A stretch of 64,000 bases of DNA from Streptomyces cucumeris (GTDB lineage Bacteria > Actinomycetota > Actinomycetes > Streptomycetales > Streptomycetaceae), in assembly GCF_024295805.1 (NCBI RefSeq), contig NZ_JANCLX010000001.1, positions 186,001-250,000 of the forward strand. The letters are read 5' to 3'. A program made the position numbers and the translations under genes. Shown in pieces: positions 6,873 through 38,963 of the stretch (positions within the stretch are counted from its first letter, which is position 1; each line of letters begins with the position of its first letter). Below the pieces are notes generated by a model, which did not search any database, was not told the origin of the DNA, and saw only the letters and a program-made list of their open reading frames with translations.

Positions 6873-6943
6873 CCGGCCCCGGAGCCGTGGCGGGGGCGGC
6901 CCGGGCGGAGGGGACGACAACACAGCGATGGAAGGCAGACCAG

Positions 6944-7627
6944 ATGAACCGGGTGCTCGTGGTGGACGACGAGCCGCAGATCGTACGCGCCCTCGTGATC
7001 AACCTGAAGGCGCGCAAGTACGAGGTGGACGCCGCGTCGGACGGCGCGACCGCCCTGCGGCTGGCCGCCACCCGCCACCCCGACGTGGTCGTGCTCGACC
7101 TCGGACTGCCCGATATGGACGGGGTGGAGGTGATCAGGGGGCTGCGCGGCTGGACCCGGGTGCCGATCCTGGTGCTCTCCGCGCGCCAGACCTCCGACGA
7201 GAAGGTCGAGGCCCTGGACGCGGGCGCCGACGACTACGTCACCAAGCCCTTCGGCATGGACGAGCTGCTCGCCCGGCTGCGCGCCGCCGTCCGCCGGGCC
7301 GAGCCCACCGTGCAGTCGGAGGATCCGGTGACCGTCGAGACCGAGACGTTCTCGGTCGACCTGGCGGCCAAGAAGGCCCACCGCGACGGCCGTGACGTCC
7401 GGCTGACGCCCACCGAATGGCACCTGCTGGAGGTGCTGGTGCGCAATCCCGGCCGGCTGGTCAGCCAGAAGCAGTTGCTCCAGGAGGTCTGGGGCCCCTC
7501 CTACGGCACCGAGACCAACTACCTGCGCGTCTACATGGCCCAGCTCCGCCGCAAGCTGGAGGTGGACCCCTCGCATCCGCGGCACTTCATCACCGAGCCG
7601 GGCATGGGCTACCGGTTCGAGCGGTGA
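6944..7627 (+). CDS. kdpE: KdpE, OmpR-type response regulator
   Basis: KdpE is the DNA-binding partner of KdpD and activates kdp transcription. The 227-residue product begins VLVVDDEP after the initiator Met-Asn-Arg; the frame is open 19 codons further upstream, but this ATG has GGAAGG eight bases before it and gives the usual receiver start. Asp52 in VLDLGLPDMDG is the phosphorylation site, the conserved Lys is in DYVTKPFG, and a winged helix domain follows (TPTEWHLLEVLVRNPGRLVS). The last 12 codons plus the stop are repeated exactly 95 bases downstream, outside the gene. Confidence 0.95.
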   Translation: MNRVLVVDDEPQIVRALVINLKARKYEVDAASDGATALRLAATRHPDVVVLDLGLPDMDGVEVIRGLRGWTRVPILVLSARQTSDEKVEALDAGADDYVTKPFGMDELLARLRAAVRRAEPTVQSEDPVTVETETFSVDLAAKKAHRDGRDVRLTPTEWHLLEVLVRNPGRLVSQKQLLQEVWGPSYGTETNYLRVYMAQLRRKLEVDPSHPRHFITEPGMGYRFER

Positions 7628-7722
7628 TCAGCGGACCGGGGTGTGCGGCCGGGGGTCCGGGGGTTGCCCCCGGGGGATGGAGCATCACCGAGCCGGGCAT
7701 GGGCTACCGGTTCGAGCGGTGA
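7588..7722 (+). repeat. Exact 40-bp direct repeat of the kdpE 3' end
   Basis: Bases 7588-7627, which encode the last 12 residues of KdpE (ITEPGMGYRFER) and the stop, occur again without a mismatch at 7683-7722. The 55 bases between contain a G/C-rich hairpin. The second copy is not in a gene and lies just upstream of the promoter of the next gene. This could be insertion of a small palindromic element with duplicated target, a slippage duplication, or an assembly error at the hairpin. Confidence 0.95.
7657..7673. terminator. G/C hairpin after kdpE (terminator or REP-like element)
   Basis: Arms CCGGGGG and CCCCCGG pair perfectly around a three-base loop, 30 bases after the kdpE stop. G/C-rich hairpins without a U tract commonly end transcripts in Streptomyces. 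The surrounding GGGGGTCC...CCCCCGGGGGAT sequence also resembles the small palindromic repeats scattered between streptomycete genes. Confidence 0.6.
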
Positions 7723-7747
7723 CGGCGTCGCGGTGGGGCCTCACCGG

Positions 7748-7753
7748 TACGCT
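7748..7753 (+). promoter_or_regulatory. -10 box TACGCT of a leaderless promoter
   Basis: TACGCT fits the streptomycete -10 pattern TANNNT and lies six bases before the ATG at 7760. No ribosome binding site is present, so transcription most likely starts at or beside the start codon. No clear -35 is visible. Confidence 0.55.
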
Positions 7754-7759
7754 GGCCGT

Positions 7760-8170
7760 ATGAGTTCCGCACGCCAGCCCTCCGAGAAGGGTGACAAGCC
7801 GGCCGGCCGCTTCCGGCGGATGCTCGACCGGCTGTCGACTTCCCAGGAGGAGCTTCTGTCCGCCGAGCTCCAGCAGGACGCGGAGGACGCGGGCTGTACC
7901 AAGATCGGTGACTGCGGTGACCGGCAGATCGTGAAGGTGACGGGTACGCTGCGCACGGTCACACTGCGGCCGAGGGCCGGAGTACCCGCGCTGGAGGCGG
8001 AGCTCTTCGACGGCACCGCCGCGTTGGACGTGGTGTGGCTGGGCCGTCGCTCCATCATCGGTATAGAACCGGGCCGCAGGCTGATCGCCTCCGGCCGGAT
8101 CTCCATGAGTCACGGGCGCCGGGTGCTGTTCAATCCGAAGTACGAACTCCGACCGCTCGGACAGGAGTAG
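7760..8170 (+). CDS. OB-fold nucleic-acid-binding protein
   Basis: A 136-residue soluble protein whose central region (about residues 45-130) has the OB-fold pattern IVKVTGTLRTVTL...ELFDGTAALDVVWLGRR...RRLIASGRIS. The frame is open upstream to 7643, but that region contains the duplicated kdpE tail; the ATG at 7760 is preceded by a -10 box and begins the conserved part. Such proteins are widespread in actinobacteria beside a DUF3159 gene and trkA genes (Rv2694c in M. tuberculosis, as I recall). Nucleic-acid binding is inferred from the fold only; the actual role is unknown. Confidence 0.85.
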   Translation: MSSARQPSEKGDKPAGRFRRMLDRLSTSQEELLSAELQQDAEDAGCTKIGDCGDRQIVKVTGTLRTVTLRPRAGVPALEAELFDGTAALDVVWLGRRSIIGIEPGRRLIASGRISMSHGRRVLFNPKYELRPLGQE

Positions 8171-8173
8171 CCG

Positions 8174-8932
8174 GTGACGTCAGACGACAAGCCGACCCCC
8201 ACCGAAGACCACGAGACCGCCGCGCGGAGCAGGGCGGCGGCCGACACCGCGCTCCTGGAGGCGTTCGGCGGCGTACGGGGCATGGTGGACACCACCGTCC
8301 CCGGCCTGGTCTTCGTCCTGCTCTACACGATCAAGCGGGACATCCACCTCGCCGCCATCGCCGCGCTCGGGCTGACGGTGCTGCTGGCGCTGGCCCGGCT
8401 GGCGCGCAAGGAGACCCTGAAGCACGCCTTCAGCGGCGTCTTCGGGGTCGCGTTCGGCGCGATCTTCGCCATGATGTCCGGTGACGCCAAGAACTTCTAT
8501 CTGCCGGGCATGCTCTACACCCTCGGCCTGGCGGTCGCCTACGTCCTGTCGGCGATCTTCCGCTATCCGCTGATCGGTGTGCTGCTCGGGCCGATGCTCA
8601 AGGAGAACCTCTCCTGGCGTACCCGCAATCCGGGCCGGTTCCGCGCCTACACCAAGGCCACCTGGGCATGGGGGCTGATCCTGCTGGCCAAGTCGGCGAT
8701 CCTGTTCCCGCTCTACTGGTGGGGCGACGCCACCCAGCTCGGCTGGGTCAAGGTCGCGCTGGGCATTCCGCCGTTCCTGCTCTGCGTCTATCTGACCTGG
8801 ATCTTCCTGGCCAAGGCCCCGCCGCCGATCGACGTCATCGCGGAGATGGAGGCCGAGGAGAAGGCCGAGCGGGAGCGTGAGCGCGCCAGGGCCGAGCACG
8901 GCCCGGTCGCCGAGCCGCCCCGCTTCCCCTGA
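8174..8932 (+). CDS. DUF3159 membrane protein
   Basis: This 252-residue protein starts with GTG three bases after the preceding stop, so the two genes are co-transcribed. It has five or six hydrophobic helices between residues about 35 and 215 and a charged C-terminal tail rich in Glu and Arg (EMEAEEKAERERERARAE). The family signature LLEAFGGVRGMVDTTVPGLVF is present near the N-terminus. DUF3159 proteins sit next to trkA pairs across actinobacteria; a role in K+ or pH homeostasis is suggested by context only. Confidence 0.88.
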   Translation: MTSDDKPTPTEDHETAARSRAAADTALLEAFGGVRGMVDTTVPGLVFVLLYTIKRDIHLAAIAALGLTVLLALARLARKETLKHAFSGVFGVAFGAIFAMMSGDAKNFYLPGMLYTLGLAVAYVLSAIFRYPLIGVLLGPMLKENLSWRTRNPGRFRAYTKATWAWGLILLAKSAILFPLYWWGDATQLGWVKVALGIPPFLLCVYLTWIFLAKAPPPIDVIAEMEAEEKAERERERARAEHGPVAEPPRFP

Positions 8933-8990
8933 CGCGGTCCGCCCGCGCCGACGGCCGTGAGCGACGACTGACGGCGCACCCACGACCGAC

Positions 8991-9027
8991 GAGGGCCCCG
9001 GGAACCGTAACGGTTCCCGGGGCCCTC
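8991..9027. terminator. Bidirectional terminator between DUF3159 and trkA
   Basis: A perfect 17-bp stem (8991-9007 GAGGGCCCCGGGAACCG paired with 9011-9027) closes on a TAA loop. It lies between two converging genes and can end transcription from both sides. It is the strongest hairpin in the window. Confidence 0.9.
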
Positions 9028-9049
9028 GCCCGTGTCATGACCTGCGGGA

Positions 9050-9730
9050 TCAGCTCCCGGCGGACGGCTCCCGGCGGACCGACAGCAGGTCCTCCAGCTG
9101 CTCCTCGCGCGCCTGCGCCGCGACGAACAGCAGCTCGTCGCCCGCCTCCAGGACATCGTCCTTGTTCGGGGTCAGCACCCGGGTGCCGCGGATGATGGTG
9201 ACCAGGCTGGTGTCCTCCGGCCACTCCACATCGCCGACCCGGGTCCCGGCCAGGGCCGCCTCCGGCGGCAGCGTCAGCTCGACCAGGTTGGCGTCGCCGT
9301 GGCTGAAGCGCAGCAGCCGGACCAGGTCGCCGACGCTCACCGCCTCCTCGACCAGCGCCGACATCAGCCGCGGAGTGGAGACGGCGACATCCACGCCCCA
9401 CGCCTCGTTGAACAGCCACTCGTTCTTGGGGTTGTTGACCCGGGCCACCACCCGGGGCACCCCGTACTCGGTCTTGGCGAGCAGCGAGACGACCAGGTTG
9501 ACCTTGTCGTCACCGGTGGCCGCGATGACCACGTTGCAGCGCTGCAACGCGGCCTCGTCCAGCGAGGTGATCTCACAGGCGTCCGCGAGCAGCCACTCGG
9601 CCTGCGGCACCCGCTCCACCGAGATGGCGGTGGGCGCCTTGTCGATGAGGAGCACCTCGTGGCCGTTCTCCAGCAGTTCGCCCGCGATGGAACGCCCCAC
9701 GGCGCCCGCTCCGGCAATGGCGACCCTCAT
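9050..9730 (-). CDS. trkA: TrkA-family RCK potassium-uptake regulator (second gene)
   Basis: TrkA proteins bind NAD(H) or nucleotides and gate K+ transporters from the cytoplasmic face. This 226-residue protein has one RCK_N domain with GAGAVGRSIAGELLENGH and the acidic residue of IDK, followed by an RCK_C domain (about residues 140-220). The start overlaps the stop of the upstream trkA by four bases (ATGA); the frame continues upstream only inside that gene. The pair corresponds to CeoC/CeoB of mycobacteria by order and size. Confidence 0.93.
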   Translation of the reverse strand: MRVAIAGAGAVGRSIAGELLENGHEVLLIDKAPTAISVERVPQAEWLLADACEITSLDEAALQRCNVVIAATGDDKVNLVVSLLAKTEYGVPRVVARVNNPKNEWLFNEAWGVDVAVSTPRLMSALVEEAVSVGDLVRLLRFSHGDANLVELTLPPEAALAGTRVGDVEWPEDTSLVTIIRGTRVLTPNKDDVLEAGDELLFVAAQAREEQLEDLLSVRREPSAGS

Positions 9731-10398
9731 CGGTTGTTCCCCTCCTCGGGCCCCTCGTCGAAGGCCGCCTCGACCTTCTCGACCTCGTCGGTGCGCATCA
9801 TCACATGGACGAGGTCGCCCTCCTGCAACACCGTCTGGGAGGTGGGCAGGATGGCCTCGCCGAGCCGGGTCAGGAACGCGACCCGCACCCCGGTCTCCTC
9901 CTGGAGTTTGCTGACCTTGTGCCCGACCCATGCGGGGGAGGTGTGCACCTCGGCGAGCTGCACCCCGCCGCTGGGGTCGCGCCACAGCGGCTCGGCGCCG
10001 GACGGCAGCAGCCGCCGCAGCATCTGGTCGGCGGTCCACCGGACGGTGGCCACGGTGGGGATGCCCAGGCGCTGGTAGACCTCGGCGCGCCGGGGGTCGT
10101 AGATCCGGGCCGCCACGTTCTCCACGCCGAACATCTCGCGCGCCACCCGGGCCGCGATGATGTTGGAGTTGTCGCCGCTGCTGACCGCGGCGAAGGCTCC
10201 GGCCTCCTCGATCCCCGCCTCACGCAGGGTGTCCTGGTCGAAGCCGACACCGGTCACCCGGCGCCCGCCGAAGCCCGCGCCGAGCCGGCGGAAGGCGGTG
10301 GGGTCCTGGTCGACGACCGCGACCGTGTGGCCCTGCTGCTCCAGGGTCTGGGCGAGCGCGGAGCCCACCCGGCCACAGCCCATGATCACGATATGCAT
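9727..10398 (-). CDS. trkA: TrkA-family RCK potassium-uptake regulator (first gene)
   Basis: A 223-residue RCK protein with the Rossmann motif GCGRVGSALAQTLEQQGH and VVDQD, then an RCK_C domain with the pattern TSQTVLQEGDLVHVMM. Two single-RCK proteins encoded together probably form a hetero-oligomeric ring. No TrkH/KtrB membrane partner is encoded nearby; the KimA-like permease upstream and the Kdp pump downstream are the only K+ transporters in the window. In other actinobacteria this gene is directly divergent from that permease, but here a conservon intervenes. Confidence 0.93.
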   Translation of the reverse strand: MHIVIMGCGRVGSALAQTLEQQGHTVAVVDQDPTAFRRLGAGFGGRRVTGVGFDQDTLREAGIEEAGAFAAVSSGDNSNIIAARVAREMFGVENVAARIYDPRRAEVYQRLGIPTVATVRWTADQMLRRLLPSGAEPLWRDPSGGVQLAEVHTSPAWVGHKVSKLQEETGVRVAFLTRLGEAILPTSQTVLQEGDLVHVMMRTDEVEKVEAAFDEGPEEGNNR

Positions 10399-27797: not shown

Positions 27798-29432
27798 GTG
27801 TTCCTGACGATTACCACCACCGGCACCGATGAGCGCCCCGCGACCGACCTCGGGTTTCTGCTGCACAAGCACCCCGACAAGGCGCAGCGGTTCTCCACCT
27901 CCCACGGCACCGCGCATGTCCTCTACCCCGAGGCGACCCCTCAGCGCTGCACCGCGGCGCTGATGCTCGAGGTGGACCCCGTGGCGCTGGTGCGGCGCGG
28001 GCGCGGCAAGGGCCGGGGCGGCGCGCCCGACTCCGCGCTGGCGCAGTACGTCAACGACCGTCCGTACGCGGCCTCCTCACTGCTGGCCGTGGCGCTGAGC
28101 AATGTCTTCTCCAGCGCTCTGCGGGGCCAGTGCAAGGCCCGGCCCGAGCTGCCGGTGCGGCCGCTGCCGCTGCGGATCGAGGTGCCCGCGCTGCCCGCCC
28201 GCGGCGGTGCCGAGCTGGTCGAGCGGCTCTTCGCACCGCTGGGGTGGACGGTGACGGCCGAACCGGTCGTATTGGACGAGGAGTTCCCCGAATGGGGTGA
28301 CTCCCGGTACGTCCGGCTGGTGCTCGAGGGAGAGCTGCGGCTGGCCGACGCATTGCGCCATCTGTATGTGCTGCTGCCGGTGCTGGACGACGCCAAGCAC
28401 TACTGGGTCGCCCCGGACGAGGTGGACAAGCTGCTGCGGTCCGGGGAGGGCTGGCTGGAGGACCACCCCGAACAGCGGCTGATCACCAGCCGCTATCTGG
28501 CCCGCCGCTGGTCGCTGACGCGCAACGCGCTGGAGCGGCTGGAGCTGGCCCGGCTCGCCGAGGCGGATGACACCGAGGTGGAGGAGATCGACAACGCGGT
28601 CGCCGAGACCACGGAAGAGTCCGGCGCCGAGGGGGACGGCGACGGGACACCGGCGACCGGGGGAGGAGTGGGTGACGGGGAGACGGCGGATGCCGGGAAG
28701 CCGGTGCCGCTGGCCGTCCAGCGGCGCGAGGCGATCCTCGAGGCGCTGCGCGGCACCGAGTCCGCCCGGGTGCTCGACCTCGGCTGCGGACAGGGCCAGC
28801 TGCTGGCGGCGCTGCTGAAGGACGTGCGGTTCACCGAGATCGTCGGTGTCGATGTGTCGATGCGCGCGCTCAACGAGACGGCGCGGCGGCTGCGGCTGGA
28901 CCGGATGTCCGAGCGGCAGTCGGCCCGGCTGAAGCTGATGCAGGGGTCGCTCGCGTACACCGACAGCAGGCTGCGCGGCTATGACGCGGCGGTGCTCTGC
29001 GAGGTGATCGAGCATGTGGATCCCCCGCGGCTGCCCGCCCTGGAGTACGCCGTGTTCGGCGCCGCGCGGCCCCGTGCCGTCGTGCTGACCACGCCCAACG
29101 TCGAGTACAACGTGCGCTGGGAGACGTTGCCCGCCGGGAAGGCGCGCCACCCCGACCACCGCTTCGAATGGACCCGGGAGGAGTTCCGCGGCTGGGCCCG
29201 GCAGGTCGCCGAACGGCACGGCTACACCGTGGAGTTCCGCCCCGTCGGACCGGACGACCCCGAGGTGGGGCCGCCCACTCAGCTCGCGCTGTTCCGCCTC
29301 GGTGAAGGCGACCCAGGCACCGACGGCGGCACAAGCGCCGACCACAGCACGAGCACCAGCAACAGCACAAGCACCAGCAACAGCGGCACCGAGACCATCA
29401 GCACCACGACCGCGAAGGAGGCGGCCGCGTGA
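27798..29432 (+). CDS. hen1: Hen1, 3'-terminal RNA ribose 2'-O-methyltransferase
   Basis: Bacterial Hen1 methylates the 2'-OH at the 3' end of cleaved tRNA before Pnkp seals it, so the repaired site resists the same ribotoxin. The 544-residue protein has the Hen1-specific N-terminal domain (MFLTITTTGTDERPATDLGF, about residues 1-250), an acidic linker, and a methyltransferase domain with VLDLGCGQGQLL and metal-binding CEVIEHVD. The last 40 residues are Ser/Thr/Asn repeats encoded by two 18-bp units (29346-29381). The GTG start is seven bases after GATACT, suggesting a leaderless mRNA. The stop overlaps pnkp by four bases. Confidence 0.93.
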   Translation: MFLTITTTGTDERPATDLGFLLHKHPDKAQRFSTSHGTAHVLYPEATPQRCTAALMLEVDPVALVRRGRGKGRGGAPDSALAQYVNDRPYAASSLLAVALSNVFSSALRGQCKARPELPVRPLPLRIEVPALPARGGAELVERLFAPLGWTVTAEPVVLDEEFPEWGDSRYVRLVLEGELRLADALRHLYVLLPVLDDAKHYWVAPDEVDKLLRSGEGWLEDHPEQRLITSRYLARRWSLTRNALERLELARLAEADDTEVEEIDNAVAETTEESGAEGDGDGTPATGGGVGDGETADAGKPVPLAVQRREAILEALRGTESARVLDLGCGQGQLLAALLKDVRFTEIVGVDVSMRALNETARRLRLDRMSERQSARLKLMQGSLAYTDSRLRGYDAAVLCEVIEHVDPPRLPALEYAVFGAARPRAVVLTTPNVEYNVRWETLPAGKARHPDHRFEWTREEFRGWARQVAERHGYTVEFRPVGPDDPEVGPPTQLALFRLGEGDPGTDGGTSADHSTSTSNSTSTSNSGTETISTTTAKEAAA

Positions 29433-32047
29433 CCGACACCGACCTCACCACCGCCAGGCGCAGCCTCGCCGTACCCGACCTGTCCCTGGTGGTCCTCATC
29501 GGCACCACCGGTTCCGGCAAGTCCACCTTCGCCCGGCGCCACTTCCTGCCCACCCAGGTCGTCTCCTCCGACGTCTGCCGCGGGCTGGTCGCCGATGACG
29601 AGAACGACCAGAGCGCCACCCCCGACGCCTTCGACGTCCTGCACTACATCGCGGGCAAGCGGCTGGCGGCCGGCCGGCTGACCGTCGTGGACGCCACCAA
29701 CGTCCAGCCCGAGGCCCGGCGCTCTCTGATCAGGCTGGCGCGCGAGCACGACGTCCTCCCCGTCGCCATCGTCCTCGATGTCCCCGAGGCCGAGTGCGTC
29801 CGGCGCAACGCGGCGCGGCCGGACCGCGCCGGGATGCCCACCCATGTCATCCCGCGCCAGCGCCGCGAACTGCGCCGCTCCCTGAAGTCCCTGGAGCGCG
29901 AGGGCTTCCGCAAGGTGCACGTCCTGCGCGGCCCGGAGGAGGTCGAGGCCGCGGAGATCACCACCGAGCGCCGCTACAACGACCTGCGCCACCTCACCGG
30001 TCCGTTCGACATCGTCGGTGACATCCACGGCTGCCGCTCCGAGCTGGAGACCCTGCTCGGTCGGCTGGGCTACGTCCTGCGCCGTGACGAGCGCGGCCGC
30101 CCGGTCGACGCCAGCCACCCCGAGGGCCGTACCGCGGTCTTCGTCGGCGACCTCGTCGACCGCGGCCCCGACAGCCCGGGGGTGCTGCGCCTGGTGATGG
30201 GGATGGTGGCCTCGGGCGCGGCGCTGTGCGTGCCCGGCAACCACGAGAACAAGCTCGGCCGCTACCTCAAGGGCCGCAAGGTCCAGGTCACCCACGGCCT
30301 CGCCGAGACCGTGGAGCAGCTGGAGCGGGAGCACACCGAGGACCCGGAGTTCGGCGACCGGGTCCGGGTCTTCATCGAGTCGCTGATCAGCCACTATGTG
30401 CTGGACGGCGGGGCACTGGTGGTGTGTCACGCCGGGCTGCCCGAGAAGTACCACGGCCGCACCTCGGGCCGCGTCCGCTCGCACGCGCTGTACGGGGACA
30501 CCACCGGTGAGACCGATGAGTTCGGGCTGCCCGTGCGCTATCCGTGGGCCCAGGACTACCGGGGCCGCGCCGCCGTGGTCTACGGCCACACCCCGACCCC
30601 CGTGGCCTCCTGGCTCAACAACACCATCTGTCTGGACACCGGCTGTGTCTTCGGCGGCCGGATGACCGCACTGCGCTGGCCGGAGCGGGAGCTGGTGGAC
30701 GTCCCGGCCGAGCGGATCTGGTACGAGCCGGTGAAGCCGCTGACCAACGAGGCCCCGGGCGGGTCCGAGGGCCGTCCGCTGGACCTCGGCGACGTCCGGG
30801 GCCGCCGGGTGGTGGAGACCCGGCACATGGGCCGGATCGCGGTCAAGGAGGAGAACGCGGCGGCGGCGCTGGAGGTGATGAGCCGGTTCGCGGTCGACCC
30901 GCGGCTCCTCGGCTACCTCCCGCCCACCATGGCGCCCTGCGCCACCTCCACGGAGGAGGGCTATCTGGAGCACCCGGCCGAGGCGTTCGCCGCCTACCGC
31001 GCCGACGGGGTACGCGAGGTGATCTGCGAGGAGAAGCACATGGGCTCCCGCGCGGTGGCCCTGGTCTGCCGTGACGAGGAGGTCGCGCGGAAGCGCTTCG
31101 ACGCACCCGACGGGGTGTCCGGCATGGTGTACACCCGCACCGGCCGGCCGTTCTTCGACGACCCGGCGCTGACGGAGACCGTGCTGCGCCGGGTGGGCCG
31201 GGCCGTCGAGGGCGCCGGGCTCTGGCAGGAGCTGGACACCGACTGGCTGTTGCTGGACGCGGAGCTGATGCCCTGGTCGCTGAAGGCCGCGGGGCTGCTG
31301 CGCAGCCAGTACGCGGCGGTCGGCGCAGCCTCGCGCGCCGTCCTGCCCGGTGTGCTCACGGCGCTGGAGGGCGCGGCGGCGCGCGGGGTGGAGGTGTCGG
31401 GGCTGCTCGACAAGCACCGGGGCCGCGCCGCGGACGCGGCGGCGTTCACCGACGCCTACCGGCGCTACTGCTGGCCCGTCGACGGGCTGGAGGGTGTCCG
31501 GATGGCGCCGTTCCAGATCCTTGCCGCACAGGGCCGCAGCCTGGCCGCGCTGCCGCACGACCAGCAGCTCGCGCTGATCGACCGGATGGTCGAGGCCGAC
31601 GCGCCGGGCGACGGCACTCCTGAGCGGGAGCAGCCACTGCTCGTCCCCACCCGCCGTCTGATCGTCGACACCGAGGACGACGCCTCCCGCGCCGCCGGAA
31701 CGCAGTGGTGGCTGGACCTGACGGCGGCCGGGGGCGAGGGCATGGTCGTCAAACCGCTCCAGGGCTTTGTGCGCAAGGGCGACGGCCGTCTGGTCCAGCC
31801 GGGTGTGAAATGCCGCGGCCGTGAGTACCTGCGCATCATCTACGGCCCGGAGTACACCCGTCCGGACAATCTGGACCGGCTGCGGGTGCGCCACCTCGGC
31901 CACAAGCGCTCCCTCGCGCTGCGGGAGTACGCGCTCGGGCTCGAGGCGCTGGACCGGCTGGCCGACGGTGAGCCGCTGTGGCGGGTGCACGAGGCGGTCT
32001 TCGCGGTGCTCGCGCTGGAGTCCGAGCCGGTGGACCCCCGGCTGTAG
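29429..32047 (+). CDS. pnkp: Pnkp, polynucleotide kinase-phosphatase-ligase
   Basis: This 872-residue RNA-repair enzyme has three modules. The kinase (about 1-170) carries G25-TTGSGKS32; the metallophosphatase (about 190-440) carries DIHG (D198, H200), GDLVDRGPDS and GNHENK; the C-terminal adenylyltransferase/ligase domain (about 480-872) carries EEKHMGSR with the nucleotidyl-accepting Lys536, and GEGMVVKP. It heals and adenylylates broken RNA ends, and needs Hen1 to activate ligation. The GTG start overlaps the hen1 stop, so the two proteins are made together. Confidence 0.95.
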   Translation: MTDTDLTTARRSLAVPDLSLVVLIGTTGSGKSTFARRHFLPTQVVSSDVCRGLVADDENDQSATPDAFDVLHYIAGKRLAAGRLTVVDATNVQPEARRSLIRLAREHDVLPVAIVLDVPEAECVRRNAARPDRAGMPTHVIPRQRRELRRSLKSLEREGFRKVHVLRGPEEVEAAEITTERRYNDLRHLTGPFDIVGDIHGCRSELETLLGRLGYVLRRDERGRPVDASHPEGRTAVFVGDLVDRGPDSPGVLRLVMGMVASGAALCVPGNHENKLGRYLKGRKVQVTHGLAETVEQLEREHTEDPEFGDRVRVFIESLISHYVLDGGALVVCHAGLPEKYHGRTSGRVRSHALYGDTTGETDEFGLPVRYPWAQDYRGRAAVVYGHTPTPVASWLNNTICLDTGCVFGGRMTALRWPERELVDVPAERIWYEPVKPLTNEAPGGSEGRPLDLGDVRGRRVVETRHMGRIAVKEENAAAALEVMSRFAVDPRLLGYLPPTMAPCATSTEEGYLEHPAEAFAAYRADGVREVICEEKHMGSRAVALVCRDEEVARKRFDAPDGVSGMVYTRTGRPFFDDPALTETVLRRVGRAVEGAGLWQELDTDWLLLDAELMPWSLKAAGLLRSQYAAVGAASRAVLPGVLTALEGAAARGVEVSGLLDKHRGRAADAAAFTDAYRRYCWPVDGLEGVRMAPFQILAAQGRSLAALPHDQQLALIDRMVEADAPGDGTPEREQPLLVPTRRLIVDTEDDASRAAGTQWWLDLTAAGGEGMVVKPLQGFVRKGDGRLVQPGVKCRGREYLRIIYGPEYTRPDNLDRLRVRHLGHKRSLALREYALGLEALDRLADGEPLWRVHEAVFAVLALESEPVDPRL

Positions 32048-32340: not shown

Positions 32341-33060
32341 ATGAGTCTCTTCGAGGACGGGCGGCCGTTCCTCCACGCGCTTCCCGCCGACGACCGGCGC
32401 GCGCTGCTCGCCCTCGGCAGGCCCAGGGCCTACGCCCCCTCCGAGGTCGTCCTGCGTGAACACGACCGCACGACCTTCGTCGTCGCCATCACCTCCGGCT
32501 GGGCCACCGTCTCGGTGGAGACCGAGCGCGGTGTCCGGCTGATCCTCGCGCTGCGCGGCGCGGGCGAAGTCGTCGGCGACCAGGCCGCGGTGGACCACGG
32601 TTCGCGCAGCGCCACCGTCACCGCGCTCGGGCGGATGGAGGCGGTGGTGGTCTCCGGCGACCGGTTCCGCGCCTATCTGGCGGCCCGTCCGGTCGCCACC
32701 GTGCTGATCATGCGCCAGTTCAGCTCCCGGCTGCGCAGTTCCGACGGCGAACGGCGCTCCCTCGCCTCCGAGAAGGTGCTTCAGCGGCTCGCCGCGCGGC
32801 TGGTCGAACTCGCCGAGCGCACCGGCCATTCCGGCCCCGGTGGCGCCATCACCGTCGATCTCCCGCTGCCGCAGCATGACATCGCCGCCGCCGTGGGTTC
32901 GACCAGGGAAGCGGTCGCCAAGGCGCTGCGGCTGCTGCGCGACCAGGGCGTCGTACGGACCGCCGCCCGCCGCTTCGAGGTGACGGACTTCGGCCTGCTG
33001 CGGCTGCTGGCCGAGGGGCGTGCGACGGGCGAACAGATCCCGGCGCGTCCCCGCGACTGA
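32341..33060 (+). CDS. Crp/Fnr-family transcription regulator
   Basis: A 239-residue regulator with an N-terminal cyclic-nucleotide-binding fold (about 10-125) and a C-terminal winged helix with LPQHDIAAAVGSTREAVAKALRLL. The cAMP-contacting pattern of E. coli Crp (GExxxR-S) is not obvious: the equivalent region reads GAGEVVGDQAAVDHGSRSA. No Fnr cysteine cluster is seen. The effector is therefore uncertain. GGGGAGGG precedes the ATG. It lies downstream of the RNA-repair operon but has its own promoter and a terminator between. Confidence 0.87.
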   Translation: MSLFEDGRPFLHALPADDRRALLALGRPRAYAPSEVVLREHDRTTFVVAITSGWATVSVETERGVRLILALRGAGEVVGDQAAVDHGSRSATVTALGRMEAVVVSGDRFRAYLAARPVATVLIMRQFSSRLRSSDGERRSLASEKVLQRLAARLVELAERTGHSGPGGAITVDLPLPQHDIAAAVGSTREAVAKALRLLRDQGVVRTAARRFEVTDFGLLRLLAEGRATGEQIPARPRD

Positions 33061-33458
33061 GCGCCGGCGCGTACGCCCCGCCCGTTTCCGCGACTGTGTA
33101 AACGGCTACAGCCCCCGGACTGCTCCCTGGGCACGCTGGACGGGCACGGGAGCGGGACCGTGTGCGACGGGGGTGCACACGGCCCGGCGCCCGGTACGGG
33201 AGAGGGGCGGCGGGACGGGCAGGGGGAGAGACGTCCCGCCGCCCGCTCCGGACCCCGCCACCGGCGGGCCGACAGCCGGGCACCCGGTCGGCAAGGCACA
33301 GGCGGCACGAAACCGGGCGGCGCGGCACCGGGCGGCGCGGGCACAGGCGGTACGGCACAGCGCCCCGGGCCCCGGGCCTCCCGCACCCCACACACCCCCA
33401 CGCGAAGACGACGAGCCCCCGGCCAGCCGGGGGCGGGCGGCGCGAAGGACGGCGGGCC
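33061..33458. other. Highly structured intergenic region, no convincing gene
   Basis: Three strong inverted repeats lie here: CCGTGTGC/GCACACGG (33158-33165 and 33175-33182), a 13-bp stem GGGCGGCGGGACG at 33205-33217 paired with 33232-33244, and GCCCCCGGC-ca-GCCGGGGGC at 33415-33434, about 25 bases before the next start codon. A 15-base unit ACCGGGCGGCGCGGC is repeated in tandem at 33312-33341. The 33162 frame that runs in phase into the next gene encodes only Arg/Gly/Pro-rich low-complexity sequence, so I do not call it. Confidence 0.6.
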
Positions 33459-35564
33459 ATGAACGGAACCGAGAACACCGACCTCACCGCGGACACCGGC
33501 ATCCGGCGGCTGGACATCCCCCAGGGCGGCCCCCTGGACGGTGCGGGCGAGCCGGGCGGCGCCCGCACCGCGCGCGAGGCCCGCGCCCATCTGCACATCG
33601 CCGACGGTCCGGCACCGCTGCCCGCCGGGCCCGGCGACGAGGCGTGGTCCGACCTCCCCGAAGGGCCCGTACCCGACGGCGAGTTGGCGCGGCTGCACCG
33701 GCTCCACCGGCCCGCCCCCGGCCACAGCGCTCTGCGGGAGCGGCTGCGGCGCACCCATCTGCTCGCGCTGTGCGGCGAACCCGGCACCGGCCGGGCCTGG
33801 ACCGGTCTCGCACTCCTGGCCGCCTGTGCCGCACGCACCGGAGGCGGGGTCGAACGTCTCGGCCCCGGCCTCCTCCTCGGCACCCCCGCGGAGCGGCAGC
33901 GGTTCCACCGCGGTCATGGCTATCTCATCGAACTCCCCGCCGGAACCACCGATTCCATCGACTCCACCGGAGCCATGACCACGCCGGAGCCGTCACCGAC
34001 GGACAGCCGCCTCGACCGGCTGCGCATCCGGCTCGTCGAACACGGGGCGTTCGCCGTGGTCCTCGTCCCCGGCAGCCCGGTGGCCGAACGGCTGCTGGGC
34101 TCCGGCCGTCACGCGCTGCCGTACGAGCCGCCCGCCGCCGACGGCGTCCTCGACGGCCATCTCGCCGACCTGCTCGCGGAGGGCCCCGCCGAACTGCTGG
34201 AGCTGGCCCGGTCCACCGCCGCCCGGCCCGAAGTGGCCGAAGCCCTCGGTCTGGACGAGCTGCGCCCCGGTGAGGCGGCGCTCCTCGCCGACCACCTCAC
34301 CGATCACGCACGGGGGCGGATCTCCGACGCCCGGCTGCTGGCGCACTGCCGGTCGTTCGCCCCGCGCCAGGCGCGTACGTGGTTCACCGCCCCCGGCCGC
34401 CCCGACAGCCTGCCCGCGGCCCTGCCCGAACTGCGGGCCGCCGCGCTGCGGATCGCGCTCGCCGTCTTCAACGGCTCCGCGCACAGCCTCACCTCCGAGG
34501 CCGCCGAACTGCTGACCTGGGAGCTGGCCGTCACCCTCGACCCCCAGTACGCCCCGGGCCGCCCGCTGTTCACCGCCCGCCCCGGGGCCGCCCCCGCCAC
34601 CGCCCGCGCGGTGTGCGGCGACGGTGTGGAGGACCTCGGCGAGGCGTCCGTGCCGGTCCGCGCCGTGTGGTTCCAGGGGCGGCGGCTGGCGCCCGCGGTG
34701 CTCTGCGAGGTGTGGGACGGGCACCACAACCTCCGCGGTCCGGTGGCCCGCTGGCTGCGGACGCTGTGCGACGACCCGCGTCCGCAGGTCTGGGTGCGGG
34801 CCGCGGTCGCCGCGGGGGTGCTGTGCGCCCGCGACTATCTCTACGGACTGGTCGAACTGCTGCTGCCGCTGGTGCGCAGTGACAGCCCGGTGCAGCGGAT
34901 GGCAGCCGCCACCGCGCTCGCCGAGGCGTCCCGCGCCCCCGAGGTACGCCCCGCCGTGGACGGTCTGCTGCGCGCCTGGGCGCGTGGTGAGGACGAACGC
35001 GAGCGCGAGACCGCGGCGCTCGCCCACGGCTACGGCCTGGCGGCGGGTTCGGTCCCGGCGTCCCTGGCGGAGCTGGGCCGGATCGCCTGCGCCGACGGCG
35101 GCGTCACCACCTCCTACGGGGCGGTGCGGCTGCTGGCCGGGACCGAGCCGGAAGCGGTGCTGGACGGGCTCACCCACTGGCTGCGCGATCCGCGCAGACC
35201 CCGCCGTGACCTGGCGCTGCTGACGGCGCTGCGCGCGGTCACCACCCGCACCTCGTATCTGTGGGGTCTCGCGGAGGTGCCGGAGCTGGAGCCCTACGCC
35301 GCCTGGCCGTTGGCCACGGCGCTGCTGGCCGCCCGCCCCGGCTGCGCGCCCCAGCTCTCCGAACTGCTGCGGGCCGCGCTGACCTGGGCCCGTTCGGCCG
35401 GTGCCGCCGAGGACGCGCTCGTCGGCTGGATCCGGCGGGCGGCCCGCGACGAACGGCAACTGGCGGTGTTGTGCGGCTTCCTGCCCCGGCTGGCACAGGA
35501 CGGAGACGAACCGCTCGACGTCCGGGCGGCCACACGGATACGGGAGGTGCTGGAAGCGCTGTGA
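33459..35564 (+). CDS. Unrecognised 701-residue protein with degenerate P-loop and HEAT-like region
   Basis: I do not recognise this protein. Around residues 100-115 it reads THLLALCGEPGTGRAWTGLALLAA, which looks like a Walker A motif with Arg in place of the Lys. A region like an AAA/STAND large helical domain follows. The C-terminal half (about 430-700) is a run of amphipathic helices resembling HEAT repeats (PQVWVRAAVAAGVL, SPVQRMAAATALAEAS). No membrane segments. The ATG has AAGGAC upstream. Fourteen bases separate it from the next gene, so the two likely form an operon and perhaps a complex at the membrane. Confidence 0.7.
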   Translation: MNGTENTDLTADTGIRRLDIPQGGPLDGAGEPGGARTAREARAHLHIADGPAPLPAGPGDEAWSDLPEGPVPDGELARLHRLHRPAPGHSALRERLRRTHLLALCGEPGTGRAWTGLALLAACAARTGGGVERLGPGLLLGTPAERQRFHRGHGYLIELPAGTTDSIDSTGAMTTPEPSPTDSRLDRLRIRLVEHGAFAVVLVPGSPVAERLLGSGRHALPYEPPAADGVLDGHLADLLAEGPAELLELARSTAARPEVAEALGLDELRPGEAALLADHLTDHARGRISDARLLAHCRSFAPRQARTWFTAPGRPDSLPAALPELRAAALRIALAVFNGSAHSLTSEAAELLTWELAVTLDPQYAPGRPLFTARPGAAPATARAVCGDGVEDLGEASVPVRAVWFQGRRLAPAVLCEVWDGHHNLRGPVARWLRTLCDDPRPQVWVRAAVAAGVLCARDYLYGLVELLLPLVRSDSPVQRMAAATALAEASRAPEVRPAVDGLLRAWARGEDERERETAALAHGYGLAAGSVPASLAELGRIACADGGVTTSYGAVRLLAGTEPEAVLDGLTHWLRDPRRPRRDLALLTALRAVTTRTSYLWGLAEVPELEPYAAWPLATALLAARPGCAPQLSELLRAALTWARSAGAAEDALVGWIRRAARDERQLAVLCGFLPRLAQDGDEPLDVRAATRIREVLEAL

Positions 35565-35578
35565 GGAGAGGAACGGGG

Positions 35579-36391
35579 ATGGTGAAGGAGACGGAGACGG
35601 ACCGCACGACATGTGCGGAGGAGGAGAGCGGGCCCGGCGGCGTGCGGGAGGCCGCGCCCCGCGACACCCCTGCCCGCCGGTTCTCGGTGACCGGTGCGCG
35701 GCGGCTGCGCGAGGCGCTGCGCACCGGCGGGGACGACCTCGCCGCCGCGCTGCGCGAGGCCGACGACGGGGTACTGCTGAGCGCGCTCGACGAGGGGCCG
35801 CCCGCAGGGCGGGCCACCCGGATCGTCGTCGAGCTGGTGCGCCGGGCGCCGGAGCGGGGCCCTGGGCTGGCGGACGCGGTCTGCGAGAAGGTGCTGGTCG
35901 CCCATCTCTACCTCGATGCCCCGGCCGGTCGCGGGACCCCCGGCGGGGCGGGCCCGGACTCGGACTCGGACCCGGACGCCCGGCTGCGGGTGCGCAACGC
36001 GCTGATGCTCTACGAGGGTCTGGTGCGCCCGTACGCGGAGCGCGGGGCGGTGCCCGAGCTGATGGCATGTGTCCTGCCCGGGCTGTGGAGCGCGGGTGAC
36101 GGCACCGGCGGTGAGGTGGTGCGCCGGATCCTCGGCACCCGGCAGCCCACCGGATTCGGTGAGCGGGGCTGGAAGGCGCTGTTCGGCGCGGTCGCCGAGG
36201 AGTGCCGGGAGCGCGAGGAGGAGGTGCGCCGGACCGCCCGGCCGAAGACACGGCGGCGGCGCTTCCGGCCGCGGCGCGCGGCGGACGACGGCGGTCGGAT
36301 CGATCTGCAACCGGGCCAGCTCTGGGTTTCGGCCCTGCTGGGCTTCATCGCCGTGGCGCTGGTGCTGATCGTGGTGCTCGCGGCGGGATGA
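35579..36391 (+). CDS. Unrecognised 270-residue protein with C-terminal membrane anchor
   Basis: I do not recognise this protein. It is mostly charged and helical, with a basic stretch (RPKTRRRRFRPRRA, about residues 223-236) directly before a single C-terminal membrane helix LWVSALLGFIAVALVLIVVLA. This topology would leave the body in the cytoplasm. GAGGAGAGG precedes the ATG, and a GTG one codon later is also possible. It follows the degenerate P-loop protein closely, suggesting partnership. 36392-36568 after it is C-rich repeat (CCCCCGGCCCCCGCCC) with no gene. Confidence 0.7.
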   Translation: MVKETETDRTTCAEEESGPGGVREAAPRDTPARRFSVTGARRLREALRTGGDDLAAALREADDGVLLSALDEGPPAGRATRIVVELVRRAPERGPGLADAVCEKVLVAHLYLDAPAGRGTPGGAGPDSDSDPDARLRVRNALMLYEGLVRPYAERGAVPELMACVLPGLWSAGDGTGGEVVRRILGTRQPTGFGERGWKALFGAVAEECREREEEVRRTARPKTRRRRFRPRRAADDGGRIDLQPGQLWVSALLGFIAVALVLIVVLAAG

Positions 36392-36568: not shown

Positions 36569-37798
36569 ATGGGATTCCACGTGGACTCCGAGGCCGGGCG
36601 GCTGCGCCGTGTCATCCTGCACCGCCCCGACCTGGAGCTGAAGCGGCTCACACCGTCCAACAAGGACGCACTGCTCTTCGACGACGTCCTGTGGGTGCGA
36701 CGGGCCCGCCAGGAGCACGACGGTTTCGCCGATGTGCTGCGCGACCGCGGTGTCGAGGTCCACCTCTTCGGCGATCTGCTCGCCGAGAGCCTCGCCCTGC
36801 CACCGGCGCGGTCGCTGGTCCTGGACCGGGTCTTCGACGAGAAGGAGTACGGCCCGCTCGTCACCGACCACCTGCGCGCCGCCTTCGACGAGCTCACCGC
36901 CCCCGAGCTGACCGAGGCGCTGATCGGCGGAATGACCAAGCGGGAGTATCTGGCGCGGTACCCGGAGCCGGTCTCCGTCCGGTTCCACGCCATGGACGCC
37001 GATGACTTCCTCGTCAATCCGCTGCCCAATCACCTCTTCACCCGGGACGCCTCCGCATGGGTCTACGACGGGGTCTCCATCAACGCGATGCGCTGGCCCG
37101 CCCGCTGGCACGAGACCGTCCACTACGAGGCCGTCTACCGGCACCACCCGCTCTTCGCCGACGAGGACTTCCACGTCTGGTCGGAGGGCCAGGCGGCCTA
37201 CCCCTCGACGATCGAGGGCGGCGATGTGCTGGTGATCGGCAAGGGCGCGGTGCTGATCGGCATGAGCGAGCGGACCACCCCGCAGGCCGTGGAGATGATG
37301 GCCCACCGGCTCTTCGCGGCCGGTTCTGCCCGCACCATCGTGGCCCTGGACATGCCCAAGGGGCGGGCCTTCATGCACCTGGACACCGTGATGACGATGG
37401 TCGACGGGGACACCTTCACCCAGTACGCGGGGCTCGGGATGCTCCCCTCGTACACCATCGAACCGGGCGCGGGCAGCCATGAGCTCAAGGTCACCGACCA
37501 TCCGCCCGAGCATATGCACCGCGCGATAGCCGCCGCCCTCGGACTGGACTCCATCCGGGTGCTCACCGCCACCCAGGACGTCCACGCCGCCGAGCGCGAG
37601 CAGTGGGACGACGGCTGCAACGTGCTCGCGGTCGAGCCGGGCGTGGTGGTCGCCTACGAGCGGAACGCGACGACCAACACCTTCCTGCGCAAGCGGGGCA
37701 TCGAGGTCATCGACATCCCGGGCAGCGAGCTGGGGCGGGGCCGGGGCGGACCGCGGTGTATGAGCTGCCCGGTCGAGCGGGATCCCGTGGAAGGGTAG
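36569..37798 (+). CDS. arcA: Arginine deiminase
   Basis: ArcA converts arginine to citrulline and ammonia, the first step of the ADI pathway. All catalytic regions are visible in this 409-residue protein: [31 protein letters not shown] and the C-terminal nucleophile Cys397 in RCMSCP. Length is normal. No strong ribosome binding site precedes the ATG, so it may be leaderless. The catabolic ornithine carbamoyltransferase follows after 160 bases. Confidence 0.95.
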
Positions 37799-37958: not shown

Positions 37959-38963
37959 ATGGCGATTGACCTCACCGGCCGCCATTTTCTCAAGGAGCTG
38001 GACTTCACCGCCGACGAGTTCCGCCGGCTCGTCGGCCTGGCGGCCGAGCTGAAGGCGGCCAAGCGCGCGGGCGCGGAGGTGCGGCGGCTCCAGGGCAAGA
38101 ACATCGCCCTGGTCTTCGAGAAGACCTCGACCCGCACCCGCTGCGCCTTCGAGGTCGCCGCCGCCGACCAGGGCGCCTCGACGACGTATCTGGACCCGGT
38201 CGGCTCGCAGATCGGGCACAAGGAGTCGGTCAAGGACACGGCGCGGGTGCTGGGCCGGATGTTCGACGCCATCGAGTACCGGGGGCACGGCCAGGGCGTC
38301 GTCGAGGAGCTGGCCGCGCACGCCGGGGTGCCGGTCTACAACGGGCTCACCGACGAGTGGCACCCCACCCAGATGCTCGCCGACGTGCTCACCATGACCG
38401 AGCACAGCGAGAAGCCGCTGGACCGGATCGCCTTCGCCTACCTCGGTGACGCCCGCTACAACATGGGCAACTCCTACCTGGTCACGGGCGCCCTGCTGGG
38501 CATGGACGTCCGGATCGTGGCGCCCCGGCTGCTCTGGCCGGACAACACCATCGTGGAGCTGGCCCGGCAGCTTGCCGCCGTCTCCGGCGCCCGGGTCTCG
38601 CTGACCGAGGACGTCGAGGAGGGGGTGCGCGGGGCGGACTTCGTCGCCACCGACGTCTGGGTGTCGATGGGGGAGCCCAAGGAGGTGTGGGACGAGCGCA
38701 TAGCGCTGCTGGGCCCGTACGCGGTGACGATGGACGTGCTGCGCGCGACCGGCAATGCCGCGGTGAAGTTCCTGCACTGCCTCCCGGCCTTCCATGACCT
38801 GGGCACCGACGTGGGCCGGGAGATCTACGACCGGCACGGGCTGACCTCGCTGGAGGTCTCCGAGGAGGTCTTCGAGTCCGCGCACTCCGTCGTCTTCGAC
38901 GAGGCGGAGAACCGGATGCACACCATCAAGGCGGTGCTGGTCGCCACGCTCAGCACGCCCTGA
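37959..38963 (+). CDS. arcB: Ornithine carbamoyltransferase, catabolic type
   Basis: The 334-residue enzyme interconverts citrulline plus phosphate and ornithine plus carbamoyl phosphate. Visible are the carbamoyl phosphate motif STRTR in [23 protein letters not shown] and HCLPAF. The position beside arcA and the long N-terminus favour the catabolic ArcB role over biosynthetic ArgF, although sequence alone cannot exclude the latter. GAGGAG lies eight bases before the ATG. No carbamate kinase gene (arcC) follows within the window. Confidence 0.93.

What the first reader, a model, noticed from the sequence alone, without database searches (positions are those of the whole stretch)
33459..36391. 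Unrecognised two-gene module: degenerate P-loop/HEAT-like protein with a tail-anchored partner
The 701-residue protein has a Walker-like GEPGTGRA without the Lys and a helical-repeat half; the 270-residue partner has a basic patch and a C-terminal membrane helix. They are 14 bases apart and preceded by a 400-base region of strong hairpins. The layout resembles STAND-like signalling or conflict proteins that lost ATP hydrolysis. This is my best candidate for something undescribed.
Basis: partly seen in the sequence, partly recalled or inferred. Interest (0 to 1): 0.55.

Follow-up and report, generated by a model that had tools for sequence, protein, structure and literature searches.

The report
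Shrunken bacterial conflict operon, two-gene relic
Two unfamiliar neighbouring genes in a Streptomyces genome are what remains, apparently still in use, of a much larger cell-conflict gene cluster whose other parts (a signal-making enzyme, a tubulin-like protein, GTPases) are missing from the same chromosomal spot.

Summary
Both genes are real, but they are the contracted remnant of a larger operon, not an independent module. P1 (701 aa) belongs to an actinobacterial family (116 of 295 same-genus genomes) resembling nSTAND3 NTPases with HEAT-like repeats; the Walker Lys is absent in 52 of 52 aligned members. In relatives the same slot, between Hen1/Pnkp and arginine deiminase, holds about ten genes: Crp, class III cyclase, P1, Band-7, PycTM, vWA, tubulin-like, n9, kinase/DO-GTPase and a GAP1-like membrane protein. 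P2 is that last protein's C-terminal domain and tail anchor. Tubulin, kinase/GTPase and the GAP1-like N-terminus are missing genome-wide in 7 of 7 reduced genomes. Reduced P1 form one clade (support 0.73), selection is purifying, and an operator-like site is kept. In cyclase-bearing loci the cyclase C-terminus and P1 N-terminus share an amyloid-signalling-like motif (top-ranked in 29 of 40, 4.2 expected); window P1 lacks it. The 'strong hairpins' are ordinary (z = -0.42). Function is inferred, not shown.

The parts
32341..33060 (+). Crp/FNR-type regulator (239 aa), first gene of the operon in full and reduced forms
   Evidence: PF13545 1.2e-15 and PF00027 cNMP_binding 3.7e-14; same position in neighbourhoods; dN/dS 0.06-0.11
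33097..33110 (.). Operator-like TGTA-N6-TACA (TGTAAACGGCTACA), kept in reduced and full operons; binding by the Crp protein is inferred
   Evidence: one hit per positive locus in 65 of 126 loci (loci partly overlap in genome); expected 0.01 in the window; lies at or after the crp end and before the next operon gene
33158..33182 (.). Palindrome CCGTGTGC-N9-GCACACGG, possible second regulator site; exact in part of the reduced clade only
33459..35564 (+). P1: nSTAND3-like, HEAT-like repeat protein with Lys-less Walker A
33594..33644 (+). P1 residues 46-62: place of the motif that in relatives matches the C-terminus of the cyclase; not recognisable here
   Evidence: 6% identity (ungapped) to three cyclase-bearing sister loci against 74% in the 23 residues before it
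33774..33797 (+). P1 residues 106-113, GEPGTGRA, Walker A with Arg for Lys
   Evidence: R in 51 of 52, L in 1 of 52
34761..35024 (+). P1 residues 435-522, HEAT-like repeats
   Evidence: HEAT_2 E=0.0056, below cut-off
35579..36391 (+). P2: C-terminal domain plus tail anchor of a GAP1-like protein whose N-terminal ~400 residues are absent
   Evidence: BLASTP 43-49% over P2 residues 43-268 (43-234 in L084) to residues 429-653 of two 657-aa and 517-705 of a 903-aa protein; 30-31% over residues 53-201 in L085 and L097; profile positions 412-666 of 669
36227..36277 (+). P2 basic stretch, residues 217-233
36320..36382 (+). P2 C-terminal membrane helix, about residues 248-268
   Evidence: predicted helix 245-269; GQLWVSxLLGFIAVALVLIVV in 9 of 9 aligned P2
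27798..29432 (+). Flank: Hen1 of the Pnkp/Hen1 RNA repair pair; marks one border of the slot
   Evidence: PF12623 1.2e-117
29429..32047 (+). Flank: Pnkp
   Evidence: PF16542 3.1e-174
36569..37798 (+). Flank: arginine deiminase; marks the other border
   Evidence: PF02274 1.5e-117
37959..38963 (+). Flank: ornithine carbamoyltransferase-type gene (cluster c18; name recalled from sequence, no family search)

Best explanation
The locus is a contracted derivative, retained under selection, of a large membrane-associated conflict operon. Supported by comparison: the ancestral layout was Crp - class III cyclase - P1 - Band-7 protein - PycTM - vWA protein - tubulin-like protein - n9 - kinase/DO-GTPase - GAP1-like membrane protein, in the same slot. 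The branch leading to the window and to a group of S. violaceusniger-like species lost the cyclase, everything between P1 and the last gene, and the N-terminal part of that last gene, leaving Crp - P1 - P2. Inferred mechanism: P1 is a STAND-type sensor or scaffold that no longer uses a standard ATPase cycle; its HEAT-like half would bind a trigger. P2 is the GAP1-like C-terminal adaptor held at the membrane by its tail. The two would form a small membrane-proximal complex expressed from the old Crp-type operator. In the full system P1 would contact the cyclase through a shared amyloid-signalling-like motif, the cyclic nucleotide acting on the Crp protein and perhaps on PycTM; that arm is gone here together with the motif.
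For: Same-slot comparison. P2 = C-terminal part. Missing parts, genome-wide, in 7 reduced genomes: Tubulin_2 in 0 of 7; GAP1-like profile only from position 340 or later of 669 in 7 of 7; kinase/GTPase profile no better than about 1e-9 in 7 of 7. In 13 comparison genomes, chosen by me and mostly because the long operon had been seen there, 12 have all three (Tubulin_2; GAP1-like match starting at position 7 or earlier; kinase/GTPase below 1e-197). Reduced P1 form one clade, 13 tips, support 0.73; with three full-operon loci it forms a clade of support 1.0. Purifying selection: P1 dN/dS 0.29-0.40, P2 0.29-0.55, not above pairs from full operons or core cassettes (P1 family 0.19-0.48, GAP1-like 0.54-0.93). 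P2 frame intact in 14 of 15 reduced loci. Operator kept. Motif loss.
Against: No function or interaction was tested. Structure models are too poor to use (P1 pLDDT 42, P2 58). P2 is broken in one reduced genome (G180, the S. himastatinicus record), so P2 is dispensable there. NG86 dN/dS in 75% GC DNA is rough, all 11 comparisons share the window's own branch, and P2 was compared with full-length GAP1-like proteins that include long polar linkers. Support for the reduced clade is only 0.73. The window P1 alone does not reach the nSTAND3 profile. The GAP1-like proteins match no GAP1-named Pfam model (0 of 13; whether the library holds one was not checked), so 'GAP1' rests on position, partners and layout.
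Confidence: 0.66

Rival explanations
1. The locus is a decaying remnant without function: the operon is being lost and P1-P2 are on the way to pseudogenes.
For: Most partners are gone; P2 broken in one of 15 reduced loci; P1 and P2 evolve faster than the Crp, ADI, OTC and Pnkp neighbours; the P1 head motif is erased.
Against: P2 frame intact in 14 of 15 reduced loci; P1 open in all but L105 (and cut by a contig end in L107); in L105 neighbours are broken too, which points to assembly error. dN/dS well below 1 and not above that in full operons. Operator conserved.
Confidence: 0.2
2. Crp-P1-P2 is the older compact form, and full operons arose by insertion of cyclase, GTPase and tubulin genes and fusion of an N-terminal domain to P2.
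For: The compact form is simpler; five-gene core loci without GTPase/tubulin exist (L043-L045), so the big operon is composite.
Against: Reduced P1 nest inside cyclase-bearing lineages; the cyclase is next to P1 in 34 of 40 fetched loci and in the three loci from other families that I looked at (L120-L122).
Confidence: 0.06
3. P1 and P2 act in trans with another cassette of the same genome (contig 44: Crp - cyclase - P1-like - 258 aa, PycTM next to it) as a decoy or regulator of it.
For: Such a cassette exists in the window's genome.
Against: The paralogous P1 is very distant (58.6 bits to the family profile), and window P1 lacks the motif that would pair it with that cyclase.
Confidence: 0.08

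Closest known systems
GAP1-N2 / DO-GTPase / tubulin conflict systems of actinobacteria (Kaur et al. 2020, PMC7159879; section 29 read whole, other passages by search)
   Same: Full operons carry DO-GTPase2 (PF19993 31.4 bits, over cut-off, in L083; 17.9, below it, in L085), Tubulin_2, a vWA protein, a kinase-like domain, and a downstream GAP1-like protein with a C-terminal membrane helix.
   Different: The window has none of these except the C-terminal piece of the GAP1-like protein; that family matches no GAP1-named Pfam model. Section 29 does not mention a Crp-cyclase-nSTAND-Band-7-PycTM block beside them.
nSTAND3 STAND NTPases, e.g. Avs5 (PMC12931631, passages read)
   Same: nSTAND3 profile matches 18 of 32 P1-family members; NTPase region followed by helical repeats.
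   Different: Avs5 needs its Walker Lys (passage); this family has Arg or Leu there in 52 of 52. No Sir2-type effector found; the window protein itself misses the profile.
Pycsar (PycC cyclase + PycTM; PMC11224242, passages read)
   Same: Full operons hold a class III cyclase family (profile hits 5d0g 5.4e-7) and PF18967 PycTM.
   Different: The window slot has neither. The cyclase profile matches the solved uridylate cyclase 8jsz only at E=0.61; its product is unknown.
Bacterial amyloid-signalling NLR pairs (BASS; PMC7889193, PMC12261475, PMC8086366, passages read)
   Same: Short matched motif at the N-terminus of the STAND-like protein and the C-terminus of the neighbouring gene's product, in cyclase-bearing loci.
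   Different: Partner is a nucleotide cyclase, where the passages name Bell, CHAT and TIR; amyloid formation untested; motif not recognisable in the window.
cNMP cyclases coupled to STAND-type proteins through death-like or EAD adaptors (Kaur et al. 2021, PMC8195603, passages read)
   Same: A cyclase paired with a STAND-type protein by a matched interaction element.
   Different: There the element is a folded adaptor domain in MoxR-vWA systems; here it is a short Gly/Asn-rich stretch, and the setting is a different operon.

Membership tests
nSTAND3 STAND NTPase | Match to PF20720 | tested here: inconclusive
   18 of 32 relatives at E<=1, best 1.2e-7; window protein none
nSTAND3 STAND NTPase | Walker A GxxxxGK[ST] | tested here: not met
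   Lys in 0 of 52
nSTAND3 STAND NTPase | C-terminal superstructure-forming repeats | tested here: inconclusive
   HEAT_2 in 8 of 32 members at E<=1, best 7.5e-9; window 0.0056, below cut-off
nSTAND3 STAND NTPase | P-loop fold | tested here: inconclusive
   model pLDDT 42, not usable
GAP1-N2 DO-GTPase system | DO-GTPase gene in the locus | tested here: not met
   absent from the window slot, and no strong kinase/GTPase match in the genome; present in full operons
GAP1-N2 DO-GTPase system | Complete GAP1 protein (N, M, C domains) | tested here: not met
   only the C-terminal part remains; no GAP1-named Pfam match even for full-length relatives
GAP1-N2 DO-GTPase system | Tubulin-like gene (actinobacterial theme) | tested here: not met
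   0 matches in the whole genome
Pycsar | Pyrimidine cyclase plus cyclic-nucleotide-gated effector | tested here: not met
   no cyclase or PycTM in the slot; a separate cassette on contig 44 has a cyclase and a PycTM match
BASS amyloid-signalling pair | Shared motif, N-terminus of NLR / C-terminus of partner | tested here: not met
   window head scores 47 against any cyclase tail, 10 shuffled heads average 39.6 and reach 49; met by rank in 29 of 40 cyclase-bearing loci
BASS amyloid-signalling pair | Motif forms amyloid and templates the partner | not testable with these tools
   needs peptides and assays
Known anti-phage defence system | Match to a PADLOC model | tested here: not met
   0 of 2 proteins at E<=10

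The most novel reading that the evidence does not exclude
Actinobacteria use a STAND-type receptor whose N-terminus templates, by a type-matched amyloid-like motif, the C-terminus of a class III nucleotide cyclase, so that amyloid signalling switches on a cyclic-nucleotide alarm read by a Crp regulator and a PycTM effector. The window is a natural knock-out of that arm: cyclase and motif vanished together, exposing a second, direct output of the receptor through a membrane-anchored GAP1-like C-terminal adaptor.
Probability: 0.33. Interest if true: 0.82.

Novelty: new variant of a known kind. Interest (0 to 1): 0.6.

Why it matters
It turns an 'unknown module' into the end product of a traceable operon contraction. 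Which two of about ten genes were kept beside the regulator suggests that the STAND-like protein and the GAP1-like C-terminal domain work together, a link the big operon hides because the genes lie about 13-18 kb apart (places). The matched motif between cyclase and receptor, and its loss where the cyclase is lost, would join amyloid signalling and cyclic-nucleotide signalling in bacterial conflict systems and gives a direct experiment.

Tried and rejected
Hairpin region as an RNA or regulatory structure: rejected, z = -0.42. A leftover cyclase sequence in the Crp-P1 gap: tblastn of 34 cyclases against 32.3-36.6 kb gave only chance-level matches (best E 0.004, inside P2; best in the gap 0.028, on the opposite strand). 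Direct family assignment of the two window proteins by Pfam, PADLOC and NCBIfam: nothing above cut-off. P1 profile against PDB sequences: nothing better than E=0.077. AlphaFold2 from 9-row alignments: too poor for fold search, which was therefore not run. Pfam on GAP1-like proteins: no GAP1-named model matched.

Motif tests, results against included. Gapped alignment of cyclase tails with P1 heads was blurred by low-complexity sequence, so ungapped scoring with shuffles and a within-locus rank test was used instead. In one search, 25 of 40 loci exceeded all 30 shuffles and 15 did not; the locus's own head beat the heads of all other loci in only 11 of 40 (my count from the printed table), so the match is by motif type shared among related loci and not strictly one-to-one. 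Of the three sister loci of the reduced clade only L035 exceeded its shuffles (tails were cut to 65 residues); all three rank the cyclase first. In one search the cyclase was not first in 11 of 40: L036-L040, L046-L049, L051 and L120; in L120 and L122 the P-loop search failed and a default cut was used. The 12 loci were hand-picked and are illustration only. The 17-residue comparison is ungapped.

Rows left out before counts: alignment A1 uses 32 of 41 P1-family proteins; A2 leaves out L105 and L107 (broken or partial P1); A3 leaves out L102 (broken P2) and L103 (start miscalled; the frame is in fact open with a long repetitive head); dN/dS used 11 reduced loci, with Pnkp missing for L106 and partial for L108 and P2 partial for L102 and L103; the tree left out L098 (partial) and L126 (same record as L102). 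Gene calls come from a home-made codon-usage caller, so starts and some small genes are uncertain. Loci overlap in genome (L001-L030 repeat others), so 65 is not a count of independent genomes. G085 has a weak P2-like match (5.7e-6) at a contig end without a P1 match; unresolved. In G048 the operon lies on two contigs; in G174 the Hen1/Pnkp side was not fetched.
Full report
WHAT IS THERE. Two + strand genes, P1 at 33459-35564 (701 aa) and P2 at 35579-36391 (270 aa), 14 bases apart, follow a Crp-type regulator at 32341-33060. The flanks are Hen1 and Pnkp on one side and arginine deiminase and a carbamoyltransferase-type gene on the other. Alone, P1 gives only weak HEAT_2 (0.0056, below cut-off; also weaker DUF3640 and HEAT lines) and P2 gives nothing in Pfam, NCBIfam or PADLOC. 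The gap of about 400 bases before P1 does not fold better than shuffles (z = -0.42).

P1 IS A LARGE FAMILY. It matches 116 of 295 same-genus genomes, and a profile reaches 45 of 296 genomes of the class at 1e-10, in 17 of 114 genera. nSTAND3 (PF20720) matches 18 of 32 aligned members, HEAT_2 8 of 32 (E<=1). At the Walker Lys position there is Arg in 51 and Leu in 1 of 52 sequences. The missing Lys is therefore an old family trait. At the first position after the expected Walker B strand only 14 of 52 have D or E. Loss of ATP hydrolysis is inference.

THE NEIGHBOURHOOD. I fetched 40 loci and called genes. The recurring order is Crp - c2 - P1 - c3 - c4, followed by vWA and tubulin-like genes, by an M48 peptidase, or by unrelated genes. 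c2 is a class III cyclase family (profile against PDB sequences: Ma1120 cyclase 5.4e-7; uridylate cyclase 8jsz 0.61; only 1 of 17 members reaches Guanylate_cyc, at 0.072). c3 is Band-7-like (4 of 16 members, best 2e-4). c4 is PycTM (PF18967, 5.1e-13, tested on L037). The cyclase is next to P1 in 34 of the 40 loci; the Band-7-like cluster is present in 32 and the PycTM cluster in 25. A distant subgroup sits between what look like the rpoC and rpsL genes (named from size and order, not tested). Downstream regions show n9, kinase/DO-GTPase (PF19993 over cut-off in L083, below it in L085) and a last gene for a 618-980 aa protein with a start like VHQIVFRWD or VDQIVFRWD and a membrane helix at the end in those I read.

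SAME SLOT, TWO FORMS. In G036, G058, G048, G004, G143, G129 and G174 the last genes of the long operon lie directly before arginine deiminase and OTC. Hen1-Pnkp is seen on the other side in six of these seven; in G174 that side was not fetched, and in G048 the operon is split over two contigs. In the window, G069, G096, G165, G055 and G180 and ten named loci (L099-L108; L102 is the G180 record) the operon consists of Crp - P1 - P2, as far as each contig reaches (L107 begins inside P1; P1 is broken in L105). In G096, G165 and most of the named loci one or two unrelated genes (c40, c41) lie between Pnkp and Crp. By recall the named species belong to the S. violaceusniger group. P2 aligns with the C-terminal part of the last protein of the long operon (43-49% identity over P2 residues 43-268, or 43-234 in L084; 30-31% over 53-201 in two others; alignment). 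A profile of that protein (13 sequences, 669 positions) matches reduced genomes only from position 340 onward (7 of 7). Tubulin_2 is absent from 7 of 7 reduced genomes. The kinase/GTPase profile gives no better than about 1e-9 in the 7. Of 13 comparison genomes, which I chose mostly because the long operon had been seen there, 12 have all three (GAP1-like match from position 7 or earlier; Tubulin_2; kinase/GTPase below 1e-197). The exception is G235, a five-gene core locus.

HISTORY AND SELECTION. Reduced P1 sequences form one clade of 13 tips (support 0.73); with three full-operon loci (L034, L035, L088) they form a clade of support 1.0. dN/dS (NG86) against the window is 0.29-0.40 for P1 and 0.29-0.55 for P2; neighbours are Crp 0.06-0.11, deiminase 0.06-0.10, OTC 0.12-0.23, Pnkp 0.13-0.29. 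Among other loci P1 homologues give 0.19-0.48 and GAP1-like proteins 0.54-0.93. The remnant thus looks to be under purifying selection and not looser than in the full operon, within the limits of the method. P2 is intact in 14 of 15 reduced loci and broken in G180, the S. himastatinicus record.

REGULATION. TGTAAACGGCTACA (TGTA-N6-TACA) lies at 33097-33110; chance expectation with one mismatch is 0.01 per window. The pattern occurs once in each of 65 of 126 loci, from overlapping the crp stop to 419 bases after the crp end and upstream of the next operon gene, in both reduced and full forms. It is absent from the 19 loci L052-L070 and from L041, L107 and L123. That it binds the Crp protein is inference. 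A second palindrome at 33158-33182 is exact only in part of the reduced clade.

A MATCHED MOTIF AND ITS LOSS. In many loci the cyclase C-terminus and the P1 N-terminus carry a similar 15-30 residue Gly/Asn-rich stretch, for example L067 and L053. With the head of P1 as query against all other proteins of its own locus, the cyclase ranks first in 29 of 40 loci, 4.2 expected by chance; 25 of 40 exceed all of 30 shuffles. The own pair beats all other loci in only 11 of 40, so related loci share motif types. The layout, N-terminus of a STAND/NLR protein and C-terminus of the product of a neighbouring gene, is that described for bacterial amyloid signalling (passages in PMC12261475 and PMC7889193), where partners named are Bell, CHAT and TIR. 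In 13 reduced loci the 17 residues at the motif position are 6% identical to the three sister loci, while the 23 residues before are 74% identical; among the sisters the motif is 84% identical. As far as these sequences resolve it, cyclase and motif were lost on the same branch. Amyloid behaviour is untested.

HOW IT MOST LIKELY WORKS. Supported by comparison: contraction, identity of P2, conserved operator-like site, purifying selection, motif loss. Inferred: P1 senses or scaffolds through its HEAT-like half without a normal ATPase cycle; P2 gives a membrane-bound adaptor (Kaur et al. propose, for the GAP1-N1 systems, that GAP1-C couples to effectors; passage); the pair is expressed under the Crp-type regulator and acts near the membrane. 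What triggers it and what it does to the cell is unknown; phage defence is a guess from context and no PADLOC model matches.

LITERATURE. Searches found Kaur et al. 2020 for the GTPase/tubulin systems and, in the lists shown, no paper on a Crp-cyclase-nSTAND-Band-7-PycTM cassette or on a cyclase as amyloid-signalling partner. The library holds open-licence papers only; Dyrka et al. 2020 was not read. Kaur et al. 2020 mention cNMP cyclases, Band-7 domains and Crp-like regulators in other conflict systems (passages), and Kaur et al. 2021 mention cNMP cyclases fused to adaptor domains matching those of STAND-type proteins (passage). The ingredients are known; this combination and its contraction were not found described.

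Noticed in passing
L067, L053, L059, L061 and others; c2 C-terminus / P1 N-terminus: Type-matched motif between a class III cyclase and a STAND-like protein, resembling amyloid-signalling pairs.
   Followed up: partly
L052, L054-L059, L062, L064-L067: A divergent Crp-cyclase-P1-Band-7 cassette, usually with PycTM and an M48 peptidase, sits at a fixed place that looks like the rpoC-rpsL interval.
   Followed up: no
L123 (G000 contig 44, 39000-50034), about 5553-9941 -: The window's own genome holds a second, divergent cassette: Crp, cyclase, P1-like (also Arg for Walker Lys), 258-aa protein, with a PycTM match near the contig end; cyclase and P1-like share an FHQYG stretch.
   Followed up: partly
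window 27798-32047: Hen1/Pnkp RNA repair genes border the slot in both forms; whether the link is functional or only positional is open.
   Followed up: no
L102 12175-12943: P2 is interrupted in S. himastatinicus while P1 stays open.
   Followed up: partly
L103 11010-12463: P2 of S. antioxidans is open but carries a long repetitive Gly/Thr-rich head.
   Followed up: partly
L083-L098, gene cluster n9: An 800-1000 aa protein between the tubulin-like and kinase/GTPase genes has no Pfam match (tested on L083 at E<=0.1).
   Followed up: no
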